From contig NZ_JACSQQ010000026.1 in assembly GCF_014836555.1 (NCBI RefSeq), positions 7,049 to 54,987 of the forward strand: 47,939 nucleotides of DNA. The letters run 5' to 3'. Under the pieces are notes generated by a model. It was not told the DNA's origin and did not search any database. It was given only the letters and a program-made list of their open reading frames with translations. Of this stretch, positions 70-47,939 are shown in pieces. A program made the translations under genes and the position numbers. This stretch comes from Oerskovia rustica (GTDB lineage Bacteria > Actinomycetota > Actinomycetes > Actinomycetales > Cellulomonadaceae). The stretch's first letter is position 1. The number at the start of each line of letters is the position of its first letter.

Positions 70-741
70 TCAGGCGGGGACGTCGACGACCCGGCTGTCG
101 CCGAGGGCGGGGGAGATCGTCCCGCTCGACGCCGACGCGAGGTCTGCGTCGAGCTCGACGAGACGTCCCGGCGGGACCAGGAGCCGGAACCTGGCCGCGG
201 CCGCGTAGTCGGCGCCCTCGAGCACTGCGCCGTGGGTCTGGCACCACTCGTGGAGGGTGTTCCCGATCCGGCCGGCCTCCGCGTGCGGGACCTCGACCGT
301 GACCTCGACCATGACCTCGCGGCGCAGCACGGGCGCGAGGTCGAGGGTCTCGCTCACGGCGTTCGAGTAGGCGCGGACGAGCCCGCCCGCCCCGAGCAGC
401 ACCCCGCCGAAGTAGCGCGTGACGACCGCGACCAGGTCGGTCACGTGGCGGTGGCGCAGGACCTCGAGCATGGGGATGCCGGCCGTGCCCGAGGGCTCGC
501 CGTCGTCGCTCGAGCGCTGCTGGTCGGCGTGCGTGCCGACGACGAGCGCCGTGCAGTGGTGCCGCGCGTCCCAGTGCTCCTTGCGGGTCCGTGCGATCAC
601 GGACTCCGCTTCGGCGACCGACTCGACGGGGTGCAGGAGCGTGAGGAAGCGGGACTTCTTGACCACGAGCTCGTGCTCGACAGGGCGGGCGATCGTCGAC
701 GGGAGCGGCACGCTCCGGGGGGAGTGCTGGAGGGAGGCCAT
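70..741 (-). CDS. YigZ/IMPACT family protein
   Basis: A 223-residue protein of the UPF0029/IMPACT family, often annotated YigZ. The family has an N-terminal Impact domain (about residues 20-130) and a C-terminal DUF1949-like domain (about 140-200). The family signature is visible: SDDGEPSGTAG at 78-88 and RYFGGVLLGAGGLVRAYS near 109-126. Eukaryotic IMPACT affects the GCN2 translation stress pathway; the bacterial role is not settled. The ATG at 741 was chosen because TAGGCT (750-755, minus strand) ends 8 nt upstream, which fits a leaderless transcript, and the protein then has normal family length. The longer reading frame upstream has no family similarity. Confidence 0.88.
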   Translation of the reverse strand: MASLQHSPRSVPLPSTIARPVEHELVVKKSRFLTLLHPVESVAEAESVIARTRKEHWDARHHCTALVVGTHADQQRSSDDGEPSGTAGIPMLEVLRHRHVTDLVAVVTRYFGGVLLGAGGLVRAYSNAVSETLDLAPVLRREVMVEVTVEVPHAEAGRIGNTLHEWCQTHGAVLEGADYAAAARFRLLVPPGRLVELDADLASASSGTISPALGDSRVVDVPA

Positions 742-749
742 CGACGCCC

Positions 750-755
750 AGCCTA
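750..755 (-). promoter_or_regulatory. -10 box for the YigZ gene
   Basis: TAGGCT on the minus strand ends 8 nt before the ATG at 741, the spacing of a leaderless actinobacterial transcript. No convincing -35 box. Confidence 0.5.
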
Positions 756-821
756 GCCAACGGGCGGGACGTGCTGGTCTCGAGCGGGATGGCGTCGAGG
801 GCGGCACGCCGTTCACGACGA

Positions 822-850
822 TTGAAAATAGTGTGCCAAGCGGATAGGTT
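822..850 (+). promoter_or_regulatory. promoter of recombinase-like gene
   Basis: TTGAAA (822-827), a 17-nt spacer and TAGGTT (845-850) form a good SigA-type promoter. The ATG at 857 starts 6 nt after the -10 box, so the mRNA is probably leaderless. The left copy of the 18-bp direct repeat (825-842) fills the spacer, so a protein bound there would control this promoter. Confidence 0.7.
825..842 (+). repeat. 18-bp direct repeat, copy 1
   Basis: AAAATAGTGTGCCAAGCG occurs here and again at 2073-2090, identical and in the same orientation. The two copies bracket the recombinase-like gene (857-1531) and the VOC gene (1557-2009). This copy overlaps the -35/spacer region of the recombinase-like gene. 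It may be an operator or a recombination site. Confidence 0.85.
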
Positions 851-856
851 TCCGCC

Positions 857-1531
857 ATGGCCACCGACCCTTCCGACTCACCGCTCAACGCCTCGACGGA
901 CAAGGAACGCCCGGACGCCGACCCCGCCCAGCCGCTCGCGCCGCGCTACCCGCGCCCACCCGTCACGCGCGACGAGGCCGAGTGGGTCTGGCGTGAGCTG
1001 TCGGTCGGCGCCATGTACGCGTCGACCAAGCCGGAGATGGTACGCCTGGCGGTCATCGTCGGCCTGACCCGCGCGACGGGGGCCAGGTACTCGGACCTGC
1101 TGCGCTGCACCGTCGACTCGCTCGACCTGGGGCCCACCGGCGCCCAGGCGGGGGAGGGGAGCGTCGTCGTGCAGCACGGCAAGCACCGCACCGTGCGCGT
1201 GCACCGCCTCGAACCGGGTGCGGTCATGGTCCTGCGTCGCTGGATGGAGGTCCGGGAGGAGCTGTGCTCCGAGCTGGAGGGGTCGGTGCCGCGCGCCCTG
1301 CTCCTGACGGTCCACCACACGCACGACAACGGCATCACCGTCGCGAGCGGGCTGCCCATCACGAAGCAGGGCCTGGTGCTGTCCTGGCGGCGGTTCGTGC
1401 AGCGCACCAACGCGCGGTACGGCGGGGTGCGGCCGCCGCTGCCGACGCGCTTCGAGCAGGTCCGTCGGGCGTGGCACGCGGAGGCCGCCGACGGTCCGGC
1501 CGAGCAGGTCGGGCAGGTCGAGCAGGAGTAG
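857..1531 (+). CDS. truncated tyrosine-recombinase-like protein
   Basis: A 224-residue protein resembling only part of a tyrosine recombinase catalytic domain. Residues 70-90 match the box I region (TGARYSDLL, Arg77 in the catalytic position) and VVVQHGKHRTVRVH (103-116) matches the beta-hairpin lysine region (Lys109). A degenerate box II may lie at 197-205 (Arg203/204 without the usual His). The box II HxLRH motif, the H/W box and the nucleophilic Tyr are not visible, so it is unlikely to recombine DNA unaided. It could be a DNA-binding regulator derived from an integrase, or a stable remnant. It has its own leaderless promoter and faces the VOC gene 25 bp away. The 18-bp repeat over its promoter suggests it may bind there, which is inference. 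Confidence 0.7.
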   Translation: MATDPSDSPLNASTDKERPDADPAQPLAPRYPRPPVTRDEAEWVWRELSVGAMYASTKPEMVRLAVIVGLTRATGARYSDLLRCTVDSLDLGPTGAQAGEGSVVVQHGKHRTVRVHRLEPGAVMVLRRWMEVREELCSELEGSVPRALLLTVHHTHDNGITVASGLPITKQGLVLSWRRFVQRTNARYGGVRPPLPTRFEQVRRAWHAEAADGPAEQVGQVEQE

Positions 1532-1556
1532 CCTCGGGGCCGCCCGACGGTGGAGG

Positions 1557-2009
1557 TCACTCCTCGCGTGGATCGTCCGCGGGGGAGGGGGCGGCCTTCC
1601 CGTCGAGCTCCTGGAACACCGTGACGTGGAGGCCGGCCGGAGCGTCGAGGCGTGCGTTGAGCGAGTCCCACGGGGTGCGGACGGGCGGCGCCACGAGCGA
1701 CGCCCCCGCGTCGACCAGGTCGGCCGTGACGGCCGCTGCGTCGGTCACCTCGAACGCGACGCGCAACCGGGGAGCGACCTGCCGGCCCACCTCGACGTCG
1801 TCGATCATGCGTTTCTGCGCGGGGTTGGCGATCTCGAGCGTGGCGCGCCCGGCATCGAGGATCGCGACCCGCGAGTCGCCGTCGCCGGTGAACGCCTCGA
1901 GTTGGGGGAGGCCCAGGGCGTCACGGTAGAAGGCGAGGGCTGCCTCGTAGTCCTGCGCCTCGACGACCAGGCGCAGCTGTAGGACGGGGCGGGCGGGGGT
2001 GTCGGCCAT
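1557..2009 (-). CDS. VOC (glyoxalase/bleomycin-resistance fold) protein
   Basis: A 150-residue single-domain VOC superfamily protein, showing LRLVVEAQDYEAALAFYRDA at 17-36 and the paired beta-alpha-beta-beta-beta pattern ending in HVTVFQE. VOC proteins are metal-dependent glyoxalases, dioxygenases or ligand-binding resistance proteins; the substrate cannot be told from sequence. The ATG at 2009 is 6 nt after TACCGT (2016-2021, minus), which fits a leaderless start. An in-frame upstream extension to 2087 lacks family similarity and would read through the promoter. The second 18-bp repeat lies about 50 bp upstream of this promoter. Confidence 0.85.
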   Translation of the reverse strand: MADTPARPVLQLRLVVEAQDYEAALAFYRDALGLPQLEAFTGDGDSRVAILDAGRATLEIANPAQKRMIDDVEVGRQVAPRLRVAFEVTDAAAVTADLVDAGASLVAPPVRTPWDSLNARLDAPAGLHVTVFQELDGKAAPSPADDPREE

Positions 2010-2015
2010 CCGGCC

Positions 2016-2021
2016 ACGGTA
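2016..2021 (-). promoter_or_regulatory. -10 box for the VOC gene
   Basis: TACCGT on the minus strand ends 6 nt before the ATG at 2009, which is typical leaderless spacing. Confidence 0.5.
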
Positions 2022-2072
2022 GGTCAGAGGCTCGGATGCTGCGCGCCGACCCCCTTCGCCTCCCTTCTGGAC

Positions 2073-2090
2073 AAAATAGTGTGCCAAGCG
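2073..2090 (+). repeat. 18-bp direct repeat, copy 2
   Basis: An identical copy of the 825-842 repeat in the same orientation. It sits upstream of the VOC promoter, and no promoter boxes on the plus strand match those at the first copy. Confidence 0.85.
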
Positions 2091-2176
2091 TCCCGACGAC
2101 GCGACTCACCCACACATTCGGCTCACCAAAAAAGCCCTGACGAGCCGTGGCGGGCCTCGCGGGCCCTCCGCACGAC

Positions 2177-2216
2177 GACGGCCCCCTTGCTCCAGCCGGG
2201 GGAGCAGGGGGCCGTC
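2177..2216 (-). terminator. long GC hairpin ending the MoxR/DUF58 operon
   Basis: Arms 2177-2193 and 2201-2216 pair over about 16 bp with a single bulge, 20 nt past the stop of the membrane gene at 2238. A T6 run (A6 at 2128-2133 on the plus strand) follows further downstream on the minus strand after additional GC-rich inverted sequence. Probable rho-independent terminator. Confidence 0.65.
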
Positions 2217-2237
2217 GCGCCGTGTCGCGAGGTCGTC

Positions 2238-2795
2238 TCAGCGCCACCAGGTCCGCGGGACGGCGAGGACGACGAGCCCGATCAGCGCGACAGCGGCCAC
2301 GACGACGAAGAGCCCATTCCTGTCCAGGGTCGAGGCCGCGAAGCCGACGAGCGCCAGCCCTTGGCACGCGAGCTGGATCACGGCTGCGCGGCGCAGCTCC
2401 GGGACGAGCACCGCGCGCTCGACGCGGCCCTTCCGCGGTACGCGCGCAGCCCACCAGGAGGAACGCAGCACGAGGTGGGCGAGCGGGAGGAGCAGGAAGA
2501 CGACCGGGTCGAACGACGTGTCGGCCCCGAGCGTCGCGAGGGCGCCGCCGAACAGCACCGCGTGCGGCACCGGGATGTGCGGGCGCGCCACGACGACGGC
2601 GGCCAGGACCAGGGCGACGGCCACGCTCCCCAGCAGCGAGGGGACCAGCTGGACCACGGCGAGGACGCCGAACACGAACGTCGCCCCGATCAGCACCGCA
2701 CGCAGGACGTCGCCCGAGACGGTCGGGCCGGTGCTCACCTCGGTCGCCGGCGGTCCCGCTGGTTTCTCGGGCGGGGCGGTGGGGTGCACGCTCAT
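2238..2795 (-). CDS. membrane protein of the MoxR/DUF58 operon
   Basis: A 185-residue protein I cannot place in a named family. The first 30 residues are Pro-rich, followed by about four to five hydrophobic segments: a long pair from about 32 to 73, one around 80-110, one near 143-158 and a C-terminal one near 165-180. The ATG at 2795 overlaps the stop of the DUF58 gene by 4 bp, so it is translationally coupled and last in the operon. A role as a membrane partner of the DUF58/MoxR system is inferred from position only. Confidence 0.7.
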   Translation of the reverse strand: MSVHPTAPPEKPAGPPATEVSTGPTVSGDVLRAVLIGATFVFGVLAVVQLVPSLLGSVAVALVLAAVVVARPHIPVPHAVLFGGALATLGADTSFDPVVFLLLPLAHLVLRSSWWAARVPRKGRVERAVLVPELRRAAVIQLACQGLALVGFAASTLDRNGLFVVVAAVALIGLVVLAVPRTWWR

Positions 2796-4125
2796 CGGGT
2801 CGTCCCTCGCTGGCTGTGGCGTTGACGGCGGGCCGCGAGCTCGAGCGCGGCACGGGCTCCACCCCTGTCGTTCGTCGAGGAGGTCCAGGGGACCACCAGG
2901 ACGCCCTCGCGTCGGATCGCCTCGAGTCGCTGCTCGCGTTCGAGTCGCGTGATGCGCCACGCGAGCACCACTCCCGGTTCGTCCCGGGGGACGTCGACGG
3001 TCGGCAGGATGTCGACCGCGACCACGGGGTGTCCCGTCGCTCGCCAGGTCTGGGCGATCATGGCGCTCTCGTCGTCGAGGAAGGTCGAGAACATGTACAC
3101 CAGCGCCGACGCCGGGATCTGCGGCGGGCGCGTGCGCCGTCGAGGCTCACCGATCGGGTGGGCGAGGGCGAGGGCGTGGACGATCCGCTGGAGCTGACGC
3201 TTGCCCGCAGCCGGCGGGAGCGGGCGACGGATCCACCCGAGGTCCTCGAACCCCACCCGGTCCCCGCCGTCTAGCGCGGTCTGGGCGACCGACGCCGCGG
3301 CGTGCCGGGCGATGTCCAGGGACGTCGGCCGGTCCATCGGCAGCGGGCCGCGCCCTCGCCACGTCGTGACGTCGGGACCCACCTCGTCCCGCGAGTCCAG
3401 GACCAGGACGATCGTCGCCTCGGCCGTCGCCTGGGTACGCCGGACGTACAACGTCTCGAGCCCGGGGGACCGGCGTGCGGTCGCCCGCCAGTCGATGCGG
3501 CGCAGGCGGTCCCCGGGGGCGAACGGGTGCACGTCCCGGAGCTCGGTGCCGTCTCCGAGGCGACGGGTCGTGTGCGGACCCGTGAGCCCGGCGAGCTGGC
3601 GCGGCAGGGGGAGGAGACCGAGCGGTTGGGCGGTCGGCAGGACCAACGTCCCCGGGGACCGGACCGCGTCCGGGACCGACTCGACGACGCCCTCGGGCCC
3701 CGACGCGACGTGGTCGACCCGGAACATCCGGTGCGGTCCGGTCCTCGCCGAGTGCGTCGTGAGGTCGAGGGTCCGGGACCGGTCGACCAGCACCGTGACG
3801 TCCGCGTCCTCGTTCCCGGGGCTGGTGACGCGCAGGCGGACCGGTGTGGCGCCGTCGGGCACGTCGAGGCGGAGCCGCGACCTGAGCTCCCCGGGACGCG
3901 CGTCGACGTCCACCGCCGGCTCGAACGTCGCGACCACGGCCTCGCCCCGCGGTCTGGCGCTCCACCCCCACACCGCACCGAGCAGCGCAGGAGCGCCCAG
4001 GACGGCGATGTCCGCGCGACCCGCGAGGAGACCCGTGCCGAGGAGCGCCAGACCGAGAACCACGCCCGCGGCGAGGCTCGTCGTCTGCTGCCAGCGCGTC
4101 GGACGCGAGCCCGTGGCGAGGGAGG

Positions 4126-4129
<4 letters not shown>
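2792..4129 (-). CDS. DUF58 domain protein
   Basis: A 445-residue protein with two membrane segments at the N terminus (about 17-37 and 40-55) and a DUF58 domain. The diagnostic motif is clear at 197-219 (LRDVHPFAPGDRLRRIDWRATAR), and a von Willebrand A-like strand with VLVLDSRDE begins near 241. DUF58 proteins accompany MoxR AAA ATPases, which are thought to act as chaperones for them or insert metals. Functions reported in the family range from enzyme maturation to cell-envelope stress. Start ATG 4129 overlaps the MoxR stop by 4 bp (ATGA), so expression is coupled. Confidence 0.88.
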
Positions 4130-5115
<986 letters not shown>

Positions 5116-5186
5116 CGGGTTCGCCTCTCGGTGCGGGTGTCTACGGGTGCTGGGGATGTGGGCAGCGGTGCCGACGGTCGTGCTGG

Positions 5187-5726
5187 TCAGGCGTCGCTGC
5201 GGGTCTGCTGCCGGCCGGCGCTGCGGCCGCCCTCGCCGACGGGCTGGCCGTCGGCGAGGTGCTCGATCGCGCTGACCCACGAGCGCAGGACCTTCATGGT
5301 CGGGGGGCGCGGGTCGGAGGTCATCTGCTGGTGGACCTGCGTGCCGAGCCTCGCCGCGGCCGCGCGCACCTGAGCCGGGTCGGTGCTGTGGAGGTCGATG
5401 CCCTCGTCGGCGAGAGCCGTGGCCGCGAGCGCCCGCACGCGTTGGTGTGCGCGTTCGCTGACGCGTCCGTGGCTTCCGTGCATGGCCCAGGTGAGGTCGG
5501 AGAGGTCGCGGCGTGCGCCGTCGCGGTTGGTGTCGGGCAGTGCGCGGTGCTGGGGGTCGTGTCCGGCGTCGATGCGTCGGGAGAGGACGAGGGCGATGAG
5601 GAGGGCGACGGTGAGGGCGATGGTGTGGGGGAGGTCGAGGCCGAGGTACGCGAGGGCGATGCCGGTGACGACGAGGAGTGCGGCCTGGGTGAGGATCTTC
5701 TTGTCGGTGGGGACCCGGAGCTTCAT
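5187..5726 (-). CDS. small membrane protein between DUF4129 and MoxR genes
   Basis: A 179-residue protein of unknown family. Residues 1-50 hold two short transmembrane helices (about 12-28 and 32-47); the rest is a soluble, mostly helical, Arg/Ala/Asp-rich region with no recognisable motif. It starts at ATG 5726, overlapping the upstream gene stop by 4 bp, so it belongs to the operon. Proteins in this position often accompany MoxR/DUF58/DUF4129 genes in Actinobacteria, but I infer no reaction for it. Confidence 0.75.
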   Translation of the reverse strand: MKLRVPTDKKILTQAALLVVTGIALAYLGLDLPHTIALTVALLIALVLSRRIDAGHDPQHRALPDTNRDGARRDLSDLTWAMHGSHGRVSERAHQRVRALAATALADEGIDLHSTDPAQVRAAAARLGTQVHQQMTSDPRPPTMKVLRSWVSAIEHLADGQPVGEGGRSAGRQQTRSDA

Positions 5727-6487
5727 CGCGTCTGCCCTCGGGGGGCCTGTGTGCCGGGGGTTGCTTGGTGCTGGGGTTCGTCGCTGTCGTCCGTGTCGGG
5801 TGGTGCGAAGGCGATGGCGAGGCGTTCGAGGCAGTCGCGGGCTGCGTCGACGTCCTGGGGGGTGAGGGGGTGGGTGGTGAAGCGTGCCCGCTGGTAGAGC
5901 TTCAGGAGCGTGGTGACGGCGTCGGGGTCGGCGGGGGTGGCGTCGAGGACGGTCCTGGTGAACTCGGTGGGGGTCTGTGCGGGGTGTCGGCGGTGGCCGG
6001 TGTCGGCGGTGGCGTCCTCGAGCGCTATCCAGGCGGCGGTGACGGCGTCGCGGGGGGTGGCGGCGGTGTCGAGGAGGTGCCGGGCGTGCCGGACGCCGCG
6101 GCGTAGTTCGGGGAGCTGGACCGTGAGGGTGGGGGTGGCGATGCTGGCGCCGACCGTGACGTGGTCGTGGGGGGTGGGGGCCTCGGGGGCGGGTTCGCGG
6201 GTGCGACGGCGCAGGCGCACGATCGCGATGACGGTGAGGACGACGGCGACCAGGATGGCCAGGTAGGTCATGTACTCGCCGATGCTGAGGCCGGAGGCGC
6301 GTTCGTCGAGGCCTTCGAGGAAGAGCGCGGTCTCTTCGGTGCGTTGCACGGGTGGGGTGGGGGCGACGGTGCTGGGTCTGGTGGTGACGGGCTCGAGCCG
6401 GAAGCTCCAGCGGTTTCCGGCGGCGGCGCCGACGAGGACGAGGGCGATCAGGACGACGACACCCCCTAGTCGCGTCCGGTTGCTCAT
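5723..6487 (-). CDS. DUF4129-like membrane protein
   Basis: A 254-residue protein with an N-terminal helix (about 7-25), an external segment rich in Thr/Pro, a second helix (about 71-91) and a cytoplasmic C-terminal helical domain of DUF4129 type (about 125-225: RDAVTAAWIALEDA, then TPTEFTRTVLD and a segment of regularly spaced acidic and Leu residues). DUF4129 proteins are typical members of MoxR/DUF58 clusters, often fused to transglutaminase domains; here the domain is alone. ATG 6487 overlaps the DUF3866 stop by 4 bp. The DUF4129 assignment rests on pattern and context. Confidence 0.78.
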   Translation of the reverse strand: MSNRTRLGGVVVLIALVLVGAAAGNRWSFRLEPVTTRPSTVAPTPPVQRTEETALFLEGLDERASGLSIGEYMTYLAILVAVVLTVIAIVRLRRRTREPAPEAPTPHDHVTVGASIATPTLTVQLPELRRGVRHARHLLDTAATPRDAVTAAWIALEDATADTGHRRHPAQTPTEFTRTVLDATPADPDAVTTLLKLYQRARFTTHPLTPQDVDAARDCLERLAIAFAPPDTDDSDEPQHQATPGTQAPRGQTR

Positions 6488-7656: not shown

Positions 7657-7663
7657 ACGGGTG

Positions 7664-7683
7664 AGGATAGCGTTCGTTAGCGT
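7664..7683. promoter_or_regulatory. divergent leaderless promoters DUF3866/pafB
   Basis: In the 35-bp divergent gap, TATCCT (7664-7669, minus) serves the DUF3866 GTG at 7656 and TAGCGT (7678-7683, plus) serves the pafB ATG at 7692. The two -10 boxes are so close that polymerases would compete, so the genes may be reciprocally regulated. Confidence 0.55.
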
Positions 7684-7691
7684 GGGTGCCG

Positions 7692-9783: not shown

Positions 9784-9786
9784 GCT
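9781..9786 (+). promoter_or_regulatory. -10 box overlapping the pafC stop codon
   Basis: TAGGCT begins with the TAG stop of pafC and ends 7 nt before the ATG at 9794, giving the small membrane-protein gene its own leaderless promoter inside the pafBC-tat cluster. Confidence 0.5.
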
Positions 9787-9793
9787 GGGTCGT

Positions 9794-10120: not shown

Positions 10121-10166
10121 GATCTGCGACAACAAGACTTGCGTCCGACTCCAAGGGAGCCATCTC

Positions 10167-10364: not shown

Positions 10365-10367
10365 TCC

Positions 10368-12225: not shown

Positions 12226-12261
12226 CGACGAAAAGCCCCCCGGACCGACACACCCGGACCG

Positions 12262-36312: not shown

Positions 36313-36495
36313 CTCGCCTCCTCGGGAGTTCTTTGACGCATTCAGAGCAAAATGCGTGGGTACGGAAAGGTGCTGCACGCTCTCCCGCGCCCTCTTGAGG
36401 GTGGGGGATGCGGGCAATACCCGTCCAACCCGTCCAACCTACCCCGCCGGGTGGCTCGGAGAAAAGTATCCGCCCACGTCACGAGCCCCGAAGGG

Positions 36496-37932: not shown

Positions 37933-37940
37933 CGCTTCAC

Positions 37941-39867: not shown

Positions 39868-40344
39868 GCCCACCGTCCGTTGCTCCGTGCGTCTCGCGCG
39901 TCCTGTTGCCGTCTTCATCCTACGGTGGGCCATCCTAGGGCCGGGCGGGTGCGGGGCGCTGGCATTTCGCGGTCCCGGCGGGGCGTTGTGGCCGGTTCTT
40001 CCGGTTCGTGCGGTATGGCCGGTGGGTGGCGTGCGCGACAGGTGCCATGGGGAACCTGGTGGGGAGCCGGAGCGTTCGGTTCTGCGCTCCCCCGTCAGGC
40101 AGGGGCGCGAGGCCTCTGTGCTCGACGTCACCGGGTGCCCGTTCCCCCTCGGGGGCGGGCGTCGCGTAGACTGGCGGCACAATCTGGAGTTCGTCGCTGT
40201 TCCCGCGTGTTCGTGTGAGTGTGGCCCGCCGCTGTTTTTGCGCGGGCGAGTCACCGGTGTGTGTTCGGGAGTGCGGCCAGTGGAGAGCCGACTTGGCGAC
40301 CACGCGTAACTCCCACCCTCAGCGAAACGGTTGAACACATCTCC
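39868..40344 (+). other. 477-bp divergent region with deaD leader
   Basis: Lower GC and T-richer than its surroundings. TAGACT (40167-40172) is the best -10 box for the RNA helicase gene, giving an untranslated leader of about 165 nt. The leader contains the hairpin 40224-40247. Nothing else recognised. Confidence 0.5.
40224..40247 (+). promoter_or_regulatory. hairpin in the RNA helicase leader
   Basis: GCCCGC (40224-40229) pairs with GCGGGC (40242-40247); the loop contains T5. Long structured leaders are common on deaD/csdA genes and can mediate autoregulation or cold response. Confidence 0.5.
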
Positions 40345-42267
40345 ATGTCTCTTGACACCTCTGCGCCCTCGCACGCCCTCGACCAGGTCGAGGCCGCCCA
40401 GACGCCGGCTCCCGCCGAGCAGTCGGGTCCCACGTTCGCAGACCTGGGTCTGCCCTCGAACATCCTGAAGGCCGTGACGGACCTCGGCTTCACGATCCCC
40501 TCCGCGATCCAGGAGCGCGCGATCCCCGCGCTGCTCTCCGGGCGCGACATCACGGGCGTCGCCCAGACCGGTACGGGCAAGACCGCCGCGTTCGGTCTGC
40601 CGATGCTCGCCGCGATCGACCCGAACCTGGGTCGCGTCCAGGGCCTGGTCCTCGCTCCGACCCGTGAGCTCGCGATGCAGGTGGCCGAGGCCATCGAGTC
40701 GTTCGCCAAGCACGTGCCGGGCATCGAGGTCGTCGCGGTCTACGGCGGTTCCCCGTACCAGCCCCAGCAGCGCGCGCTGCAGCGCGGCGCCCAGATCGTC
40801 GTCGGTACCCCCGGTCGCGTGATGGACCACCTGGAGCGTCGCAGCCTCGTGCTCGACGACATCCGCTACCTGGTCCTGGACGAGGCGGACGAGATGCTGC
40901 GCATGGGCTTCGCCGAGGACGTCGAGAAGATCTTCGGCCAGGCACCCAAGGAGCGTCAGGTCGCGCTGTTCTCCGCGACGATGCCGGCCCCGATCCGTCG
41001 GGTCGCCGCCCAGCACCTGAACGACCCGGTCGAGATCGCGGTGACGCGCCAGTCCTCGACGGTCACCTCGGTGCGCCAGACGTACTCCGTCGTGCCGTTC
41101 CGTCACAAGACCGGCGCGCTGGTGCGTGTTCTCGCGACCTCGGACGCCGATGCGGCGATCGTGTTCACCCGTACCCGTGGTGCGGCCGAGGAGGTCGGGT
41201 CGGCTCTCGTCGAGCGCGGCATCTCGGCGGCCACGATCTCTGGTGACGTGGCGCAGAAGGACCGCGAGAAGATCGTCGAGCGTCTGCGCTCGGGCGCTCT
41301 GGACGTCCTGGTCGCGACCGACGTCGCGGCGCGTGGCCTGGACGTGGACCGCATCGGCCTGGTCGTGAACTTCGACCTGCCGGGCGAGCCGGAGGCGTAC
41401 GTTCACCGCATCGGCCGCACGGGTCGTGCCGGTCGTACGGGCGAGGCCCTGAGCTTCGTGACCCCGGGCGAGCGCAACCGTCTGAAGTTCATCGAGAAGA
41501 CCATCCGCGCGAGCCTCGAGGAGGTCGACGTGCCCTCCCCCGCGGACGTCTCCGCGCACAAGGCTCGTCGCATCCTCGGGCAGGTCGCCGAGCGCCAGGC
41601 CGCCGGTCGCCTGTCGATGTACCGCGACCTGGTCGCGGCGCACGTCGCGGAGTCGGGCATCGACCCGATCGACCTCGCGGCCGTCCTGGTCGCCCTGTCG
41701 GTCGGTGACGACGGCCCCAAGGCGCGCGAGGAGCAGGAGCTCTTCGAGGCTCAGCGTGCCGAGGCGAAGAACGCGCGCCGTGAGCGCGAGTCCCGCCCCT
41801 ACGGCGACCGCGACTCGCGTGGCCCTCGTGAGGGTGGTCGTGGCGGTGAGCGCGGCATCCGTCGTGACGCCGTCGGGACCCGCTACCGTCTCGCCGTCGG
41901 GCACACGCACGGCGCCCAGCCGTCGGGCATCGTCGGCGCGCTGACGAACGAGGGTGGCCTGAACGGCAAGGACCTGGGCAAGATCGACATCTTCCCGAGC
42001 TTCTCGCTGGTCGACATCGCCACGCCGCTCGATGCCGCCACGATCGACCGCATCTCGCGCGCCCGGGTCGCGGGCAAGTCCTTGCGGATCCAGGTGGACC
42101 AGGGTGCGCCCCAGGGTGCCCGTGGCCCCCGTGCGGGTGGTTCGGCGCCTCGTTCGGGCGGCTACTCCGGTGGTCACTCGGGCCACGGCCCGGCCGGTCG
42201 CTACGACGAGCGTGGCGAGCGCGGCGGCGAGCGCAAGGCTCCCCGGTTCCGCGCCGGCGAGCGCTGA
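40345..42267 (+). CDS. deaD: DEAD-box RNA helicase (DeaD/CsdA type)
   Basis: A 640-residue DEAD-box RNA helicase. Q motif and AQTGTGKT (73-80), PTRELAMQV, TPGRVMDH, DEAD (179-182), SATMP, and RIGRTGRAGR are all seen; a DbpA-type RNA-binding domain (about 500-590, with IFPSFSLVDI) and an RGG-rich tail follow. It remodels rRNA and mRNA, notably in the cold. Codons use more T in third position (for example CGT and GGT) than neighbours, a sign of high expression. ATG 40345 starts the conserved protein; the leader is long. Confidence 0.93.
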   Translation: MSLDTSAPSHALDQVEAAQTPAPAEQSGPTFADLGLPSNILKAVTDLGFTIPSAIQERAIPALLSGRDITGVAQTGTGKTAAFGLPMLAAIDPNLGRVQGLVLAPTRELAMQVAEAIESFAKHVPGIEVVAVYGGSPYQPQQRALQRGAQIVVGTPGRVMDHLERRSLVLDDIRYLVLDEADEMLRMGFAEDVEKIFGQAPKERQVALFSATMPAPIRRVAAQHLNDPVEIAVTRQSSTVTSVRQTYSVVPFRHKTGALVRVLATSDADAAIVFTRTRGAAEEVGSALVERGISAATISGDVAQKDREKIVERLRSGALDVLVATDVAARGLDVDRIGLVVNFDLPGEPEAYVHRIGRTGRAGRTGEALSFVTPGERNRLKFIEKTIRASLEEVDVPSPADVSAHKARRILGQVAERQAAGRLSMYRDLVAAHVAESGIDPIDLAAVLVALSVGDDGPKAREEQELFEAQRAEAKNARRERESRPYGDRDSRGPREGGRGGERGIRRDAVGTRYRLAVGHTHGAQPSGIVGALTNEGGLNGKDLGKIDIFPSFSLVDIATPLDAATIDRISRARVAGKSLRIQVDQGAPQGARGPRAGGSAPRSGGYSGGHSGHGPAGRYDERGERGGERKAPRFRAGER

Positions 42268-42308
42268 GCGCACCGACGGGTCCTGAGCAGGACCGCTGAG
42301 CACGACGT

Positions 42309-42344
42309 GAGGGCCCCCGGAACCCCCAGGTTCCGGGGGCCCTC
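42309..42344. terminator. terminator after deaD
   Basis: A 16-bp perfect stem (42309-42324 and 42329-42344) around loop CCCA, 41 bp after the helicase stop and facing the end of the PH-domain gene. Confidence 0.88.
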
Positions 42345-42412
42345 CCTCGTTGCGGGGTCGGGCCCCTGGTGGGCGCTGGCCCGAGCAGGGCCCGGTGCCC
42401 GACGGCGCCGCG

Positions 42413-42889
42413 TCAGTCCTCGTGCGCCTCGCCGTGGGCCGCGACGAGTGCCGCCAGGCGCGCCGCCTCGCTCTCGCTGCGACGGGCCCCGTCCGCACGC
42501 TGGATGCCCATGACCGCGAGCGCCTTGCCGTCCGACAGGTCGAGGCGTACCCAGGGGTCGCCGGGGCCGAAGCGCACGGAGACGACCTGGGGCCAGTCGA
42601 GGCGGCGGGTGAAGACGATGTTGTGCACGGTGAGGTGTTCGGGGGTGACGGTGGCTCGTACCTGGCCGAGGCGCCACAGGATGAGGGCGCAGAAGGCGCC
42701 GACGCCGATCGTGGCTGCCTTGTTCCAGCCGGAGTCGGTGCCGGGTCCGGTGGCGACGAGGGCGACGAAGGTGCATCCGGTGAGGATCACGAGGGCGGCG
42801 GTGTAGGCGACGGCGGTGCCCCAGCGGGGGCGGAAGGGCGCGTAGGGGTCGCCGGGCAGGTGTTCGGGGGGTGCGACGTTGCTGCTCAC
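42413..42889 (-). CDS. PH-domain membrane protein
   Basis: A 158-residue protein with two helices (about 24-46 and 57-72) and a bacterial PH domain (about 75-130: ATVTPEHLTVHNIVFTRRLD, WPQVVSVRFG, VRLDLSDGKALAVMGIQ). Proteins of this kind sit next to hisG in many Actinobacteria (Rv2120c in M. tuberculosis). Function unknown. It is separated from hisG by strong hairpins, so it has its own transcript. Confidence 0.85.
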   Translation of the reverse strand: MSSNVAPPEHLPGDPYAPFRPRWGTAVAYTAALVILTGCTFVALVATGPGTDSGWNKAATIGVGAFCALILWRLGQVRATVTPEHLTVHNIVFTRRLDWPQVVSVRFGPGDPWVRLDLSDGKALAVMGIQRADGARRSESEAARLAALVAAHGEAHED

Positions 42890-42947
42890 GTTCCTATCCT
42901 CCCCCTGTCTGTCCTGCGGACGGCGTCGGCCGGTGCCGGGAGACGGC

Positions 42948-42990
42948 GCTGCCCGGGTGCCGGCGCGGTGGTGCGCGGCACCCGGGCAGC
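42948..42990. terminator. hairpin between PH gene and hisG
   Basis: A 15-bp perfect stem (42948-42962 with 42976-42990) in the 191-bp gap. A second long-range stem pairs 43008-43016 with 43065-43073 just after the hisG stop. Together they should end hisG transcription. Confidence 0.75.
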
Positions 42991-43080
42991 GTGGTGCTGT
43001 GTCCGGCTCCAGGGGCGTGCGGGGCTGCTCGGGTGGGTCTCCCCGGGCCTCCGGGCCTTCGGGTGCCCCTGGAGGGGGGC

Positions 43081-43935
43081 TCAGAGGCGGCAGGCGTGGA
43101 TCGAGGTGACGAGGATGGCGCGCGCCCCGACCTCGTAGAGGGCGTCCATGAGCTTGTTGGTCTGGTCGCGGCGCACCATGGCGCGCACGGCTGCCCAGTC
43201 CCGGTCGTGCAGCGGCGAGACGGTCGGGGACTCGAGGCCGGGCGTGAGGGCCACTGCGGCCTCGACGAGGTGCGCGGGCACGTCGTAGTCCATGAGGACG
43301 TACTGGCGGGCTGTGAGGACGCCCAGCAGGCGGCGGGTGAGCGTCTCCAGGCCGGCTGAGACCTCGTCGTCGGTCACGGAGGCCGGGCGGATCAGGACGG
43401 CCTCGGACTTGAGGATGGGGTCGCCGAAGACCTCGAGGCCTGCGCCGCGCAGGGTCGTGCCGGTGGACACGACGTCCGCGACGACGTCGGCGATGCCGAG
43501 CTGGACCGCGGACTCGACCGCGCCGTCCAGGTGCACCACGGAGGCCGTGACGCCGTGGGTGCGCAGGTGGTTCTCCACCAGCACCTCGTAGGACGTGGCC
43601 ACGCGCAGTCCTTCGACCTGGTCGAGGGATGTGATGGTGCCCACGGGGGCGGCGTAGCGGAACGTGGAGCCGGCGAAGCCGAGCTGCATGTGCTCGACGG
43701 CCTCGGCCCCCGAGTCGAGCAGGAGGTCGCGGCCCGTGATGCCGGCGTCGACCGTGCCGGTGCCGACGTACACGGCGATGTCGCGGGGGCGCAGGAAGAA
43801 GAACTCGACGTCGTTGTCCGGGTCCGCGAGCACGAGCTCACGGGTGTCGCGGCGCTGGCGGTAGCCGGCCTCGCGGAGCATGTCGACGGCGGGCTCGGAC
43901 AGGGAGCCCTTGTTGGGAACGGCGATACGGAGCAC
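43081..43935 (-). CDS. hisG: ATP phosphoribosyltransferase HisG (long form)
   Basis: A 284-residue long-form HisG, first step of histidine synthesis (ATP plus PRPP). It starts [20 protein letters not shown]; the PRPP loop region [14 protein letters not shown] lies near 159-172 and the C-terminal regulatory ACT-like domain (about 212-284) mediates histidine feedback. The GTG at 43935 has GAGG upstream. It is 193 bp downstream of hisE and probably in the same transcript. Confidence 0.95.
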
Positions 43936-44128
43936 GGGGTCCTCGCGTTTCTTGGGGGAGTTCGGGGACGGGGCGGTCAGGGTGACCGATCACCCGGTCG
44001 GCGCGCCGGCGACGGCGGGCGCGCAGGGACGGACGGTGGACGACTGCGGACGACGGACATGCGTGAGGGAAGCGACCCGGTGGCCTGAGCCTCCGTGCGC
44101 CTCCCCCTGGACCCGGACCTGGCCGGGT

Positions 44129-44392
44129 TCACAGATGCTTGTACACGTCCTGCAGGGTCAGGCCCTTGGCCAGGAGCAGCACCTGCACGTGGTAGAGGAG
44201 CTGGGAGACCTCCTCGGCCGTCTTGTCGTCACCCTCGTACTCGGCCGCCATCCATACCTCGGCGGCCTCCTCGACGATCTTCTTCCCGATCGCATGGACA
44301 CCGGCATCCAGCTCCGCGACCGTGCCGGAACCGGCGGGTCGGGTGGTGGCCTTCTCGGTGAGCTCGGCGAACAGCCCTTCGAACGTCTTCAC
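44129..44392 (-). CDS. hisE: phosphoribosyl-ATP pyrophosphatase HisE
   Basis: An 87-residue HisE of the MazG-like fold; it hydrolyses phosphoribosyl-ATP, the second step of histidine synthesis. [14 protein letters not shown] (37-50) carries the metal-binding acidic residues and [19 protein letters not shown] follows. GTG 44392 is 6 nt after TACCCT (44399-44404, minus), so it heads the his unit with a leaderless mRNA. Longer in-frame extension has no similarity. Confidence 0.93.
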
Positions 44393-44398
44393 CCGACC

Positions 44399-44404
44399 AG
44401 GGTA
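44399..44404 (-). promoter_or_regulatory. -10 box of hisE
   Basis: TACCCT on the minus strand ends 6 nt before GTG 44392. Confidence 0.55.
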
Positions 44405-44462
44405 GTCGCCCGGCGGTGGGTGGGCGGACCTGTCCCGCCCACCGGTCACCGCGCGACCGCGG

Positions 44463-44500
44463 CCCCCCCCCCGGGGGGGGGGGGGGGGGGGGGGGCCCCC
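44463..44500. repeat. C10-G23-C5 homopolymer fold-back
   Basis: C at 44463-44472, G at 44473-44495, C at 44496-44500, between ribH and hisE. The C and G runs can pair, giving a terminator-like hairpin for the riboflavin operon, but the length suggests slippage or a base-calling problem. Confidence 0.8.
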
Positions 44501-44525
44501 GCGCCGTCGGGCCGTCAGCGGGTGC

Positions 44526-44993
44526 TCACAGGTCGCGCAGCGCCACGACCGTCGCGATGGCCGCCTCGGCGGCCTCCGCGCCCTTGTCCTCCCGGGAGCC
44601 GGGCAGCCCGGCCCGGTCGAGGGCCTGCTGCTCGTCGTCGCACGTGAGCACCCCGAAGCCGACCGGGACCCCGGTGCGCACCGAGACGTCCGTCAGGCCG
44701 GTCGTGGCGGCCGAGCACACGTACTCGAAGTGCGGGGTCCCGCCGCGGATCACGACGCCCAGCGCGACGACGGCGTCCGCGCCGTGCTCGGCGGCGCGTG
44801 CGGCCGCGACGGGCAGCTCGAACGAGCCCGGCACGCGGATCTCGGTGACGTGCGAGACGTGCGCGGCCGCGAGCGCCCGACGGGCGCCCGCGAGGAGGCC
44901 GTCCATGACCTCGGTGTGCCAGCTGGCGGCCACGACGGTGATCCGCAGCCCGGTGCCGTCGACGGTGATCTGGGGTGCTCCTGCGCCGCTCAT
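44526..44993 (-). CDS. ribH: 6,7-dimethyl-8-ribityllumazine synthase
   Basis: A 155-residue lumazine synthase, the penultimate step of riboflavin synthesis, forming icosahedral or pentameric assemblies. Signatures: [18 protein letters not shown] (20-37), [11 protein letters not shown] (54-64), [18 protein letters not shown] and [21 protein letters not shown] 44993 overlaps the ribBA stop by 4 bp. It is the last gene of the rib operon, followed by the C/G homopolymer. Confidence 0.95.
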
Positions 44994-46396
44994 CGGTCGC
45001 TCTCCTTCGTGGTGGGGGTGGTGTCGGGGGTGATCTCGAGGCTGTCGAGGAGGTGGCCCATGGCGACCTTCTTCGTCATGAGGTAGCCGTGGTTGTGCTG
45101 GCCGTGCCCGACCTCGAGCCGGTGGGCGTCGGCGACGTCGATGCCGTGCGCGGCGAGCCCGGTGACCTTGGCGGGGTTGTTCGTGAGGAGCGTGACGCGG
45201 TGGAGGCCGAGGTCGTGCAGGATCGCGGCCGCGGCCCCGTACTCGCGCCGGTCGACGGGCCAGCCGAGCTCGAGGTTGGCCTGGACGGTGTCGAACCCGG
45301 CGTCCTGGAGCTCGTACGCGCCGATCTTGGCGAGCAGGCCGATGCCGCGTCCTTCGTGCCCGCGCAGGTACACCACGGCGCCGCCCTGGGCGGCGACGCG
45401 TTCCATGGACGCCTGGAGCTGGGGGCCGCAGTCGCAGCGCAGCGACCCGAACGCGTCCCCGGTCAGGCACTCGGAGTGCACGCGCACGAGGGGCGCGACG
45501 GGGGCGCCGTCCGGCCCGGTGCCGGCGGGGGCGCCTCCTCCCGCCGGGACGGCGACGGGCACGAGGGCCACGTGCTCCGCCCCGGTGCGCAGGTCGCGGT
45601 ACCCGTGGACGCGGAAGTGGCCGTGCGCGGTGGGCAGGTCGGCCACGCTCGTGGCCTGCACACGGGGCACGAGCGTGGGCTGCGTGTCCTGCTCGGGGAC
45701 GGCGGGGTCGTGCTCGCGGCGCCACGCGATGAGGTCGGCGATCGTGATGAGCACCAGCCCGGCGTCCTCGGCCGCACGGGCCGCGTCGTCGAGCCGCATC
45801 ATGGTGCCGTCGTCGTTGACGAGCTCGGCGATGCCCCCGACCTCCCCCGCCCCGGCCAGGCGCACCAGGTCGACCGCCGCCTCGGTGTGCCCGGCACGGT
45901 GCAGCACCCCTCCCGGGACGGCACGCAGGGGCAGGACGTGCCCGGGGCGGATGAGGTCGACCGCGCCCGAGGCCGGGTCGGCCAGGACGTGCAGGGTCCT
46001 GGCGCGGTCCGCGGCGGAAATCCCCGTCGTGACGCCCGTGGCGGCGTCGACCGTGACCGTGTACGCCGTGCGCCGGGGGTCCTGGCTGTGGGGGACCATG
46101 AGCGGCAGGTCCAGGGCGTCGGCCCGCGCTGCCGGCATGGGTGCGCACAGGTAGCCCGAGGAGTGCCGGATGGTCCACGCGACCCACTCGGGGGTCACGG
46201 TCCCGGCCGCGAAGACCACGTCGGCCTCGTTCTCGCGGTCCGGGGAGTCGGCGACCAGGACGGGACGCCCGGCACGGATCGCGTCGAGGGCCTCCTCGAT
46301 GGTGCCGGTCCGCACGCGCCCGGGGTGCTCGGGAGGGTGGGGGGTGGCGTCGCCGGGACGGTCGGCGTCGGGCTGGGAGGTCATGGCGGTGCTCAT
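44990..46396 (-). CDS. ribBA: RibBA: DHBP synthase / GTP cyclohydrolase II
   Basis: A 468-residue bifunctional enzyme. The N-terminal DHBP synthase (about 30-235) shows DRENEADV (53-60) and RPGHVLPL; the C-terminal GTP cyclohydrolase II (about 245-445) has [20 protein letters not shown] with the three zinc Cys, [10 protein letters not shown] and a final TNNPAKV. It supplies both precursors of riboflavin. ATG 46396 overlaps the ribE stop by 4 bp. Confidence 0.95.
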
Positions 46397-47103
46397 TCCT
46401 TCGCTGCGCTGGTCCGGAGGGCGTCCGCCGGGCCGGCGGCGACCGCGGGCGCGTCGGTGCCCGCGAGCGCCCGACCGTCCGGGTCTGCCAGGTGGGTGGC
46501 GGCACCGGTCGTGAGGAGTCGCTCGACGTACTTCGCGAGGACGTCGACCTCGAGGTTGACCCGGTCACCAGGGGCCAGGGAGCCGAGGATCGTGGCCTCG
46601 AGCGTCGTGGGGATCAGGGACACGCCGAACGAGGCGTCGTCCACGTGGGTCACCGTGAGGGACACGCCGCTGACGGTGATCGAGCCCTTCTCCGCGACGT
46701 AGCGCGTCAGGCCCGGGGGCGCGGACACGACGAGGTCGTCCCACCGCTCCCCCGGGGCCCTGCTCACGAGGGACCCGACGCCGTCGACGTGGCCCTGCAC
46801 GATGTGCCCACCCAGGCGCGTGTCGGCGCGCACCGCCCGTTCGAGGTTCACGGGCGACCCGGGGCGCAGGTCGCCCAGGGCGGTGCGGCGCAGCGACTCG
46901 GGCATGACGTCGGCCGTGAAGGTGCCGTCCTGCCCCACGCCCGTGACTGTCAGGCACACCCCGTCGACCGCGATCGAGTCGCCCAGGTGAGCGTCCGAGG
47001 TGGCGAGGGGGCCGTGCACGGTCAGGACGGCGTCGGAGGTCTCACCCCCGGGGAACGCGATCTCGCGGACCGTGCCGATCTCTTCGACGATTCCGGTGAA
47101 CAT
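46393..47103 (-). CDS. ribE: riboflavin synthase alpha chain
   Basis: A 236-residue riboflavin synthase with two lumazine-binding repeats: [12 protein letters not shown] (1-12) with [11 protein letters not shown] (43-53), and [13 protein letters not shown] (98-110) with [12 protein letters not shown]. It dismutates two lumazines into riboflavin. The last about 35 residues (Ala/Asp-rich) extend beyond the usual end. ATG 47103 shares its first base with the ribD stop. Confidence 0.94.
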
Positions 47104-47939
47104 CAGCTCTCCTGTTCGGGGGTGGTGCGGTGGGTGGTGCCGTGGGTGCGGGTCGGGCCGTCGGGCGTCGGCGGCCCCGGCGCGGGGACGTCCGGGGCGC
47201 GGGGGCCGGGTGCGGGAGGCGTCGACGACACGGCGGGAACGGTCCGGGCCACGACCAGGACGTCCTCCCCCAGTCGACGCACGTCGTGCGTGGCGAAGCG
47301 GGGGGCGCCCGCGAGCGTCGTCACGCCCAGGTCGCCCACGGCCCCCAGGCCCGCCCCCAGGAGAACGGGCGCGAGGTACGCGTGGACCTCGTCGACCGCG
47401 CCTGCCGCGAGGAACGCCGTCGCCAGCCCCGGGCCGCCCTCGACCAGGACGTGGCGCACCTCGCGCGCGGCCAGCTCCGCCAGGACCGCGCGGACGTCGT
47501 GCGTGCGCACCTGCAGCACCGGCCCGCCCCCGTCGGTCGTCCAGGTGCCCCCCGGCGCGAGCCGCACGTGCGGGGGAAGGTCGCGGAGCCCGACGACGAC
47601 ACGCAGGGGCTGGTGCTCGGCAAGCCCGGGCTCCCGCCCGACCACCCCACCAGCGACACGCAGGGGCTGGTGCTCGGCAAGCCCGGGCTCCCGCTCCTCT
47701 GCGGCGTTCGCAGGAGACGTCGTGCGCGCCGTGAGCGACGGGTCGTCCGCGACGACGGTCCCGGTGCCCACGAGGATCGCGTCGACCTGCGCCCGCACCC
47801 GGTGGGCGTGCTCGCGCGCAGCGGGCCCCGTGATCCACTGCGAGGTGCCGTCGGCGGCCGCCACGCGCCCGTCGAGGGTCGAGGCGAGCTTGAGGGTCAC
47901 GTAGGGCCTCCCGCGCCGCACCGCGACCAGCCACGGCCC
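47103..47939 (-). CDS. ribD: RibD, reductase domain (5' end outside window)
   Basis: The reading frame runs off the right edge; the 278 visible codons are the C-terminal reductase domain of RibD, starting RRGRPYVTLKLASTLDGRVA, with HVLVEGGPGLATAF later. The deaminase domain must lie beyond 47939. A 57-bp in-frame tandem duplication (41-bp identical repeats at 47597-47637 and 47654-47694) doubles the peptide REPGLAEHQPLRV in a region between beta strands, which may add an unneeded loop. The tail is Pro/Thr-rich. Any FMN riboswitch would be upstream, outside the window. Confidence 0.9.
   Translation of the reverse strand, partial: GPWLVAVRRGRPYVTLKLASTLDGRVAAADGTSQWITGPAAREHAHRVRAQVDAILVGTGTVVADDPSLTARTTSPANAAEEREPGLAEHQPLRVAGGVVGREPGLAEHQPLRVVVGLRDLPPHVRLAPGGTWTTDGGGPVLQVRTHDVRAVLAELAAREVRHVLVEGGPGLATAFLAAGAVDEVHAYLAPVLLGAGLGAVGDLGVTTLAGAPRFATHDVRRLGEDVLVVARTVPAVSSTPPAPGPRAPDVPAPGPPTPDGPTRTHGTTHRTTPEQES
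47597..47637. repeat. 41-bp repeat in ribD, copy 1
   Basis: Identical to 47654-47694, period 57 bp (19 codons), in frame. Confidence 0.9.
47654..47694. repeat. 41-bp repeat in ribD, copy 2
   Basis: Second copy of the 41-bp unit, 57 bp to the right of the first. Confidence 0.9.

What the first reader, a model, noticed from the sequence alone, without database searches (positions are those of the whole stretch)
105..47271. Heptamer GGGGGAG switches strand exactly at dif
Reading by eye, GGGGGAG occurs on the plus strand at 109, 1150, 1581, 2198, 9051, 11551, 12525, 13701, 14955, 15793, 19145, 20199, 20290, 21159, 22715, 22825 and 23775, and I see none on the minus strand left of dif. Right of dif the complement CTCCCCC is at 25049, 25330, 27973, 28055, 29028, 29596, 32435, 34395, 38345, 40087, 41535, 42899, 44101, 45842, 46747 and 47265, with one opposite copy at 43954. 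The flip lies between 23.8 and 25.0 kb, bracketing dif. The motif points to dif from both sides, as expected for an FtsK-orienting (KOPS-like) or architecture-imparting sequence. It is present in genes on either strand, so codon use alone does not explain it.
Basis: partly seen in the sequence, partly recalled or inferred. Interest (0 to 1): 0.87.

Follow-up and report, generated by a model that had tools for sequence, protein, structure and literature searches.

The report
DNA signposts pointing to chromosome terminus
A short G-rich word (best form YGGGGGAG) points at the dif site from both chromosome arms in this Oerskovia-like genome and in its sampled relatives, most likely as a direction sign for the FtsK DNA pump; the word was already in print as an actinobacterial architecture-imparting sequence.

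Summary
In 40 stretches of a complete same-genus chromosome it is 234:21 leading:lagging while leading GC skew is 0.008. Synonymous shuffles predict 156:109 in genes against 181:18 observed, so polarity comes mainly from missing wrong-way copies. Around dif it is 346:4 in 20 further family genomes and 409:8 in 119 named dif loci, still 165:2 in the 43 loci whose GC skew opposes it. The best form is YGGGGGAG; canonical KOPS GGGNAGGG is less polar. (T/C)GGGGGAG is already published as an actinobacterial AIMS in Corynebacterium papers. Added here: codon and substitution tests, persistence in dif-less Streptomyces-like chromosomes (151:49), and an FtsK gamma domain with its backbone contacts kept but Ala at the KOPS-reading Asn. 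FtsK binding is untested.

The parts
109..23781 (+). Left arm: 21 copies of GGGGGAG, all on the plus strand, pointing to dif (109, 718, 1150, 1581, 1904, 2198, 3607, 5627, 9051, 11551, 12525, 13701, 14955, 15793, 19145, 20199, 20290, 21159, 22715, 22825, 23775)
   Evidence: ranking
24200..24227 (+). dif site, about 28 bp, AACGCCGATAATGTACATTATGTCATTA
   Evidence: read; core 24205-24224 single in the genome; similar by eye to the Frankia alni dif quoted in PMC3025954 (passage)
25049..47271 (-). Right arm: 16 copies of GGGGGAG on the minus strand, pointing to dif (25049, 25330, 27973, 28055, 29028, 29596, 32435, 34395, 38345, 40087, 41535, 42899, 44101, 45842, 46747, 47265)
43954..43960 (+). The single wrong-way copy of GGGGGAG right of dif
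   Evidence: by subtraction it is the one plus-strand copy that did not align to the relative G095
24954..26099 (+). Xer-like tyrosine recombinase gene beside dif (context; role in the system not shown)
   Evidence: 130 bits to XerC and 118 to XerD models, below their cut-offs of 335 and 330; Phage_integrase domain; a 66-73% identical gene near dif in 11 of 20 other family genomes and a 94% one in G095

Best explanation
YGGGGGAG is the actinobacterial AIMS, most likely acting as the FtsK-orienting polar sequence of this lineage. The FtsK gamma domain would read it at the division septum, load the motor in one orientation, and so drive both chromosome arms toward dif, where XerCD resolves dimers. 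Selection keeps it mainly by purging wrong-way copies over the chromosome, and near dif also by accumulating right-way copies. SHOWN: sequence-specific polarity, its switches around dnaA and at dif, independence from GC skew and codon use, depletion of wrong-way copies, extra conservation of right-way copies, conservation around dif in the class, presence of an FtsK gamma domain.
For: Polarity 234:21 in 800 kb of a complete same-genus chromosome with leading GC skew 0.008; best heptamer by z, best octamer CGGGGGAG 148:8. Mostly minus before dnaA (173 kb), mostly plus after it, plus-to-minus at dif (2359 kb). 14 of 21 single changes of the core lower the toward-dif fraction from 0.99 to 0.49-0.60, as a sequence-specific reader would (similar). 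Leading-strand density rises toward dif (rho -0.39, p 0.013, 39 of 40 stretches). In coding DNA within 5% of dif: 29 right-way against 16.6 +/- 3.1 expected. Same word, opposite fate by replication strand: sense GGGGGAG 115 in leading genes and 5 in lagging genes, sense CTCCCCC 13 and 66. Right-way copies retained in the relative 27 of 34 against 145 of 301 one-substitution neighbours (Fisher p 0.0005). 20 further family genomes 346:4, each toward dif; 119 named dif loci 409:8, 165:2 in the 43 loci whose GC skew opposes it. FtsK gamma in 40 of 41 family genomes.
Against: No binding or translocation data. The residue tied to specific KOPS reading, Asn777 in P. aeruginosa (PMC6466248, passages), is Ala here, so the contact must differ. 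That Asn is also absent from 20 of 20 gamma domains read outside the class (A, S or T), where the motif could not be counted, so it is not a motif-specific co-change. The polarity persists without dif in Streptomyces-like chromosomes, so it cannot serve dimer resolution alone. Other words also carry strand bias in G095, some with larger z at shorter length (CAAG 2112:1274, CTAC 1936:1156). In pooled dif loci of Pseudonocardiales and Micromonosporales C-rich words, not GGGGGAG, rank first, and in Corynebacterium GGGGAGA and AGGGGAG rank above it. In G095 itself the bias is lower in the four stretches nearest dif (0.84-0.92) than in mid-arm (0.95-0.98).
Confidence: 0.72

Rival explanations
1. 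YGGGGGAG is a strand-polar word read by another machine that follows the replication strand, for example a Chi-like regulator of AdnAB/RecBCD-type end resection, or a replisome or primase signal; FtsK does not read it.
For: Leading-strand polarity extends over the whole chromosome and persists in dif-less Streptomyces-like chromosomes (151:49). E. coli Chi is also G-rich and leading-strand biased (general knowledge). [quoted passage not shown]
Against: The switch brackets dif within 1.3 kb in the window, and within 20 kb of dif the word is 346:4 in 20 genomes. Density rises toward dif, which PMC5993296 contrasts with simple strand-biased words such as Chi. No other reader was tested.
Confidence: 0.22
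2. The pattern is a by-product of GC skew, gene orientation or codon use.
For: 65% of called coding bases are on the leading strand, and codon shuffles alone give a mild excess of 156:109. The reversed control word GAGGGGG is mildly biased, 131:72.
Against: Observed 181:18 in genes; 200 of 200 shuffles have more lagging copies (minimum 86). The same word as read in the gene goes opposite ways in leading and lagging genes, and intergenic copies are 53:3. In the 43 of 119 loci whose GC skew opposes it the word is 165:2. 14 of 21 single-base neighbours have fractions of 0.49-0.60.
Confidence: 0.02
3. The canonical KOPS GGGNAGGG is the working signal and GGGGGAG is seen only because it overlaps it.
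For: GGGNAGGG is itself polar, 138:56 near dif in the family and 135:95 in G095. Some polarity remains near dif when the 5' G is excluded (HGGGGAGGG 28:10, GGGHAGGG 84:46).
Against: In G095 HGGGGAGGG is 18:14 and GGGHAGGG 94:80, far below GGGGGAG. GGGGGAG keeps a fraction of 0.98-1.00 whatever base follows it, and the base in the place of the KOPS N must be G (0.49-0.58 otherwise). In E. coli the roles reverse: GGGNAGGG 9:0, GGGGGAG 2:1.
Confidence: 0.04

Closest known systems
Actinobacterial AIMS octamers G(A/T/C)GGGGGA and (T/C)GGGGGAG, printed for Corynebacterium (C. aurimucosum PMC2830990, C. variabile PMC3219685, C. ulcerans PMC3164646; credited in PMC2830990 to Hendrickson and Lawrence 2006)
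   Same: The same word with the same preceding pyrimidine, leading-strand bias (856:61 for both octamer classes in C. aurimucosum) and switch at dif; PMC3164646 calls them the actinobacterial AIMS (passages). The second octamer class is polar here too: GHGGGGGA 203:32.
   Different: Shown here in an Oerskovia-like genome and 19 further genera of its family, with codon, GC-skew, substitution and conservation tests and a dif-less contrast. In the passages read those papers use it to find dif and name no reader protein.
KOPS of E. coli, GGGNAGGG
   Same: G-rich, on the leading strand, points to dif, switches there, denser near dif; FtsK with a gamma domain is present.
   Different: The base in the place of the KOPS N must be G, the last GG is not needed, an extra 5' purine is needed (G best, A less) and polarity is highest after a pyrimidine. 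No FtsK binding shown. The Asn that reads KOPS is Ala.
SRS of B. subtilis SpoIIIE/SftA (GAGAAGGG) and the L. lactis KOPS (GAAGAAG)
   Same: Lineage-specific polar words of FtsK-family pumps, showing that the word differs between lineages (PMC5357621 and PMC6466248, passages).
   Different: Different words; GAGAAGGG is 23:10 and GAAGAAG 92:109 in G095.

Membership tests
AIMS (architecture-imparting sequences) | Octamer over-represented on leading strands, switching near ori and at dif | tested here: met
   YGGGGGAG 201:10; switches around dnaA and at dif
AIMS (architecture-imparting sequences) | Abundance rises toward the terminus | tested here: met
   rho -0.39, p 0.013; 6.0 leading copies per 10 kb next to dif, 4.0 in the next bin, 2.2-3.4 in the others
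AIMS (architecture-imparting sequences) | Degree of strand bias rises toward the terminus | tested here: inconclusive
   In G095 0.80 near ori, 0.95-0.98 in mid-arm, but 0.84-0.92 in the four stretches nearest dif; 0.99 within 20 kb of dif in 20 other family genomes
AIMS (architecture-imparting sequences) | Bias not explained by base skew or coding strand | tested here: met
KOPS (FtsK-orienting polar sequences) | Polar distribution converging on dif | tested here: met
KOPS (FtsK-orienting polar sequences) | FtsK with a gamma domain encoded by the same genome | tested here: met
   G000:C80, 83.2 bits to PF09397; 40 of 41 family genomes
KOPS (FtsK-orienting polar sequences) | Sequence GGGNAGGG (E. 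coli form) | tested here: not met
   Weakly polar once the 5' G is excluded: 18:14 in G095, 28:10 near dif. KOPS words are lineage-specific, so this excludes only the E. coli form
KOPS (FtsK-orienting polar sequences) | Binds FtsK gamma and orients translocation | not testable with these tools
   needs binding and translocation assays

The most novel reading that the evidence does not exclude
Actinobacteria use their own FtsK address code. It is kept chiefly by strong selection against wrong-way copies over the whole chromosome.
Probability: 0.5. Interest if true: 0.55.

Novelty: new member of a known kind. Interest (0 to 1): 0.38.

Why it matters
The word has been used since at least 2010 to locate dif in Corynebacterium, and in the passages read here no reader was named for it. 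The data make the question directly testable: one 7-8 bp word with a sharp substitution profile, a nearly invariant gamma helix in the class, and a natural contrast between chromosomes with and without dif. It also offers a practical tool: motif polarity orients contigs of draft actinobacterial genomes and exposes joins between replichores, as on contig C2 of this assembly.

Tried and rejected
Codon use and gene strand: rejected. GC skew: rejected. Canonical KOPS, SRS, L. lactis KOPS, E. coli Chi (GCTGGTGG, recalled) and the Streptomyces TraB word GACCCGGA (recalled): fractions 0.59, 0.70, 0.46, 0.47 and 0.51 in G095 against 0.92 for GGGGGAG. Raw whole-genome counts by strand (638:652) say nothing because contigs are randomly oriented; they were replaced by a complete relative. 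In oriented own-genome samples (18 stretches, 94:8 against control 45:30) the orientation was set by the motif itself, so this count is partly circular and is not relied on; L165, which holds the C2 junction, was left out of it. L121 (GC 0.605) was dropped from the gradient test and kept elsewhere. Gene calls for searches came from a GC-by-codon-position caller written in the script (84.8% coding), not a standard gene finder. The 20 family genomes were picked from the 88 other genomes with a dif match, for long contigs and different genera. The Streptomyces identity and linearity of family f24 are inferred (5.8-11 Mb; 45 of 46 listed genomes without a dif match by my count; dnaA at the middle of the contig in the three sampled; 14 of 22 plasmid matches are Streptomyces). 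A test of the motif against gamma-helix variants outside the class was begun, but the DNA needed was not available.

Literature searches: GGGGGAG with FtsK gave two papers, unrelated by title and abstract; GGGGGAG with dif and chromosome gave 861, of which the 15 listed are unrelated by title; some searches were used as listings, with passages read in PMC2830990, PMC3219685, PMC3164646, PMC5993296, PMC11898615, PMC13342612, PMC3025954, PMC5357621, PMC6466248, PMC13277299, PMC11537254 and PMC3317982. Two further Corynebacterium papers with the string (PMC3022926, PMC3350403) were seen as listings only. Hendrickson and Lawrence 2006, Nolivos 2012, Sivanathan 2006 and Loewe 2008 were not read (PMC3384302 and PMC2556771 not held; the others seen only as citations).
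Full report
WHAT WAS CHECKED. The window is G000:C18:7049-54987 of a 4.35-Mb, 80-contig draft genome. Its dif region aligns at about 90% identity to that of Oerskovia turbata (L119), 88% to O. douganii (L006) and 83% to O. enterophila (L104), so the organism is taken as an Oerskovia or very close to it. GGGGGAG occurs 38 times: left of dif 21 plus and 0 minus, right of dif 16 minus and 1 plus. 0 of 100 dinucleotide shuffles reach 38 (mean 20.0). It is the most polar heptamer about dif (37:1); runs of C come second (CCCCCCC 49:7) and lead the octamers (44:5), followed by CGGGGGAG (22:0). The dif core at 24205-24224 is single in the genome within three mismatches.

CHROMOSOME SCALE. G095 is an unnamed complete chromosome of the same genus (4,326,429 bp; dif at 2,359,006; dnaA at 173,492). 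In 40 stretches of 20 kb (18% of it) the word is mostly minus before dnaA, mixed just after it (8:6 at 220-240 kb), mostly plus from 330 kb on, and minus after dif. Summed by replication strand it is 234:21, with leading-strand GC skew 0.008 and AT skew -0.003. It is the top heptamer by z and CGGGGGAG (148:8) the top octamer; shorter words such as CAAG (2112:1274) and CTAC (1936:1156) have larger z but far smaller ratios. Leading-strand density rises toward dif (rho -0.39, p 0.013, 39 stretches, one odd-composition stretch dropped); the reversed control word does not rise (rho 0.16). The fraction on the leading strand is 0.80 near ori, 0.95-0.98 in mid-arm and 0.84-0.92 in the four stretches within 5% of dif, where this genome carries a few wrong-way copies. 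In the window's own draft genome the 100 places listed show the same long runs: C1 36 minus and 4 plus; C3 22 plus and 3 minus; C2 is treated below.

THE WORD. Near dif in 20 family genomes the substitution profile is sharp. GGGGGAG is 346:4. Changing the second G, the fifth G or the A gives fractions of 0.49-0.58; 14 of 21 single changes give 0.49-0.60. Tolerated in part are A at G1 (84:9), A at G4 (91:20), A at G3 (147:60), and C or T in place of the last G (113:25, 48:9). YGGGGGAG is 305:1, and the base after the word does not matter. G095 gives a similar picture: YGGGGGAG 201:10. The E. coli KOPS GGGNAGGG is weaker: 135:95 in G095 and 18:14 without the 5' G; 138:56 near dif in the family, and 28:10 without the 5' G, so some polarity remains there. 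In E. coli MG1655, over 49.9 kb around dif, GGGNAGGG is 9:0 and GGGGGAG 2:1.

NOT CODON USE, NOT GC SKEW. Genes were called in G095 with a simple GC-by-codon-position script (84.8% coding; 65% of coding bases on the leading strand). Sense GGGGGAG occurs 115 times in leading-strand genes and 5 times in lagging-strand genes; sense CTCCCCC occurs 13 and 66 times; intergenic copies are 53:3. Synonymous shuffling within genes predicts 156 +/- 11 leading and 109 +/- 10 lagging; observed 181 and 18. 200 of 200 shuffles have more lagging copies (minimum 86), while the leading count is within their range (maximum 194). So the polarity in genes comes mainly from the absence of wrong-way copies, about sixfold. 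Near dif there is also enrichment: 29 against 16.6 +/- 3.1 expected (60 shuffles). In the window against G095 (92% identity over the aligned part), 27 of 34 alignable right-way copies are intact in both, against 145 of 301 one-substitution neighbours (Fisher p 0.0005) and 31 of 60 other words of six G and one A.

RELATIVES. 89 of 101 family genomes have a dif match. dif flanks of 20 kb on each side were taken from 20 of the 88 others, in 19 genera: 346 toward and 4 away, every genome toward dif; reversed control 68:38. 119 named dif loci of up to 8 kb, found by an exact dif core: 409 toward and 8 away; reversed control 70:57. 116 bear actinobacterial labels, among them 32 Corynebacterium, 11 Actinomyces, 11 Amycolatopsis, 3 Micromonospora, 3 Cryobacterium and 1 Bifidobacterium; a single Mycobacteriaceae locus has no copy. 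GGGGGAG is the first heptamer in the pooled Actinomycetaceae, Streptosporangiales and Microbacteriaceae loci, third in Corynebacterium, and behind C-rich words in Pseudonocardiales and Micromonosporales. In the 43 loci where GC skew runs the opposite way it is still 165:2.

A NATURAL EXPERIMENT WITHOUT DIF. Among 394 class genomes, family f24 stands out: by my count 45 of its 46 genomes have no dif match. They are 5.8-11 Mb; the three sampled carry dnaA at the middle of a single contig; one stretch matches 22 plasmids, 14 of them of Streptomyces. They are taken to be Streptomyces with linear chromosomes, which is inference. In 40 stretches of three such chromosomes the word is 151:49 (74:27, 41:12, 36:10), rank 2 of 14,887 heptamers, and YGGGGGAG is 109:25. 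Polarity thus survives without dif but is weaker, and in G115 it is mixed at the right end. The word cannot serve dimer resolution alone; directional pumping toward the chromosome ends at septa would fit.

THE LIKELY READER. The own genome has one FtsK gamma domain, matched by sequence to the gamma structures 2j5o, 2ve8 and 2j5p (the last recalled as the E. coli domain). PMC6466248 (passages) gives the P. aeruginosa DNA contacts as R770, K771, R778 and R781 on the backbone and N777 for KOPS. Placing these numbers on the QRKLKIGYNRAAR by their spacing (my mapping), the residues here are R, K, K, R and A. The stretch after G-F/Y is AKAGR in 30 of 30 family domains read and 25 of 26 class domains read (the exception is a second copy in G440); in 20 domains read outside the class it varies, but the Asn position is A, S or T in 20 of 20. 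Backbone grip is kept and the specific contact has changed, which fits a changed word. But this is one contrast, and the word could not be counted outside the class, so co-evolution is a proposal, not a result.

CONTIG C2. On own contig C2 the word runs 26:0 plus and then 0:9 minus, with no dif. The 1.8 kb just left of the change maps to G095 at 0.88 Mb and the DNA right of it to 3.10 Mb, with the join inside a multi-copy hairpin repeat. Each side keeps the polarity of its replichore in G095, so this is a misjoin or a recent rearrangement, not a second terminus.

PRIOR WORK. (T/C)GGGGGAG and G(A/T/C)GGGGGA are published AIMS in Corynebacterium, 856:61 in C. aurimucosum, used to find dif (PMC2830990, PMC3219685; passages); PMC3164646 calls them the actinobacterial AIMS, over-represented on leading and under-represented on lagging strands (passage). 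[quoted passage not shown] Passages read in two actinobacterial FtsK papers (PMC11898615, PMC13277299) describe KOPS in general or from E. coli. In the searches for GGGGGAG with FtsK and for KOPS with Actinobacteria or Mycobacterium I saw no listing or passage naming a reader for the word, but I opened only some of the papers and only in passages.

VERDICT. The finding is correct and the AIMS interpretation holds under the tests made. The KOPS interpretation is the best mechanism (0.72) but unproven. The word was known in Corynebacterium as an actinobacterial AIMS, so what is new is the instance, the sharp specificity, depletion as the main mode in genes, and the contrasts with canonical KOPS and with dif-less chromosomes.

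Noticed in passing
G000 contig C2, about 101.8 kb (L165:1820-1915): The word switches from plus (26:0) to minus (0:9) with no dif. The 1.8 kb left of the join maps to G095 at 0.88 Mb and the right side to 3.10 Mb, with the join inside a multi-copy hairpin repeat of about 90 bp: a misjoin or a recent rearrangement between replichores.
   Followed up: partly
window 24954-26099 (+): A Xer-like tyrosine recombinase lies about 730 bp from dif, scores far below the XerC and XerD cut-offs, and has a 66-73% identical counterpart within a few kb of dif in 11 of 20 other family genomes, besides G095 and named Oerskovia and Cellulosimicrobium loci. It may be a third, dif-associated Xer paralogue; whether XerC and XerD lie elsewhere was not checked.
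   Followed up: partly
window, both arms: Runs of C are also polar about dif: CCCCCCC 49 toward and 7 away, CCCCCCCC 44 and 5 (overlapping counts). Not pursued.
   Followed up: no
L165:1836-1893 and many places in G095: A hairpin repeat (GGGGTTGGGGTCGTCATCC...GGATGACGACCTCAACCCC) with dozens of imperfect matches on both strands of G095; none found in the window with 3 mismatches.
   Followed up: no
L060 (record titled Sphaerisporangium cinnabarinum): Its dif-adjacent recombinase is 71% identical to that of the window, closer than expected for that order, so the record may be mislabelled or the gene transferred.
   Followed up: no
L061 (record titled Tissierella sp., GC 0.50): Carries the actinobacterial dif core and two right-way copies of the word, so it may be a mislabelled or mixed assembly.
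   Followed up: no
G055 and G069 (family genomes): Each has a second dif-like match CAATAATGTACAATATGTCA besides the main one; in G069 it lies about 7 kb away on the opposite strand, possibly a mobile element using dif.
   Followed up: no
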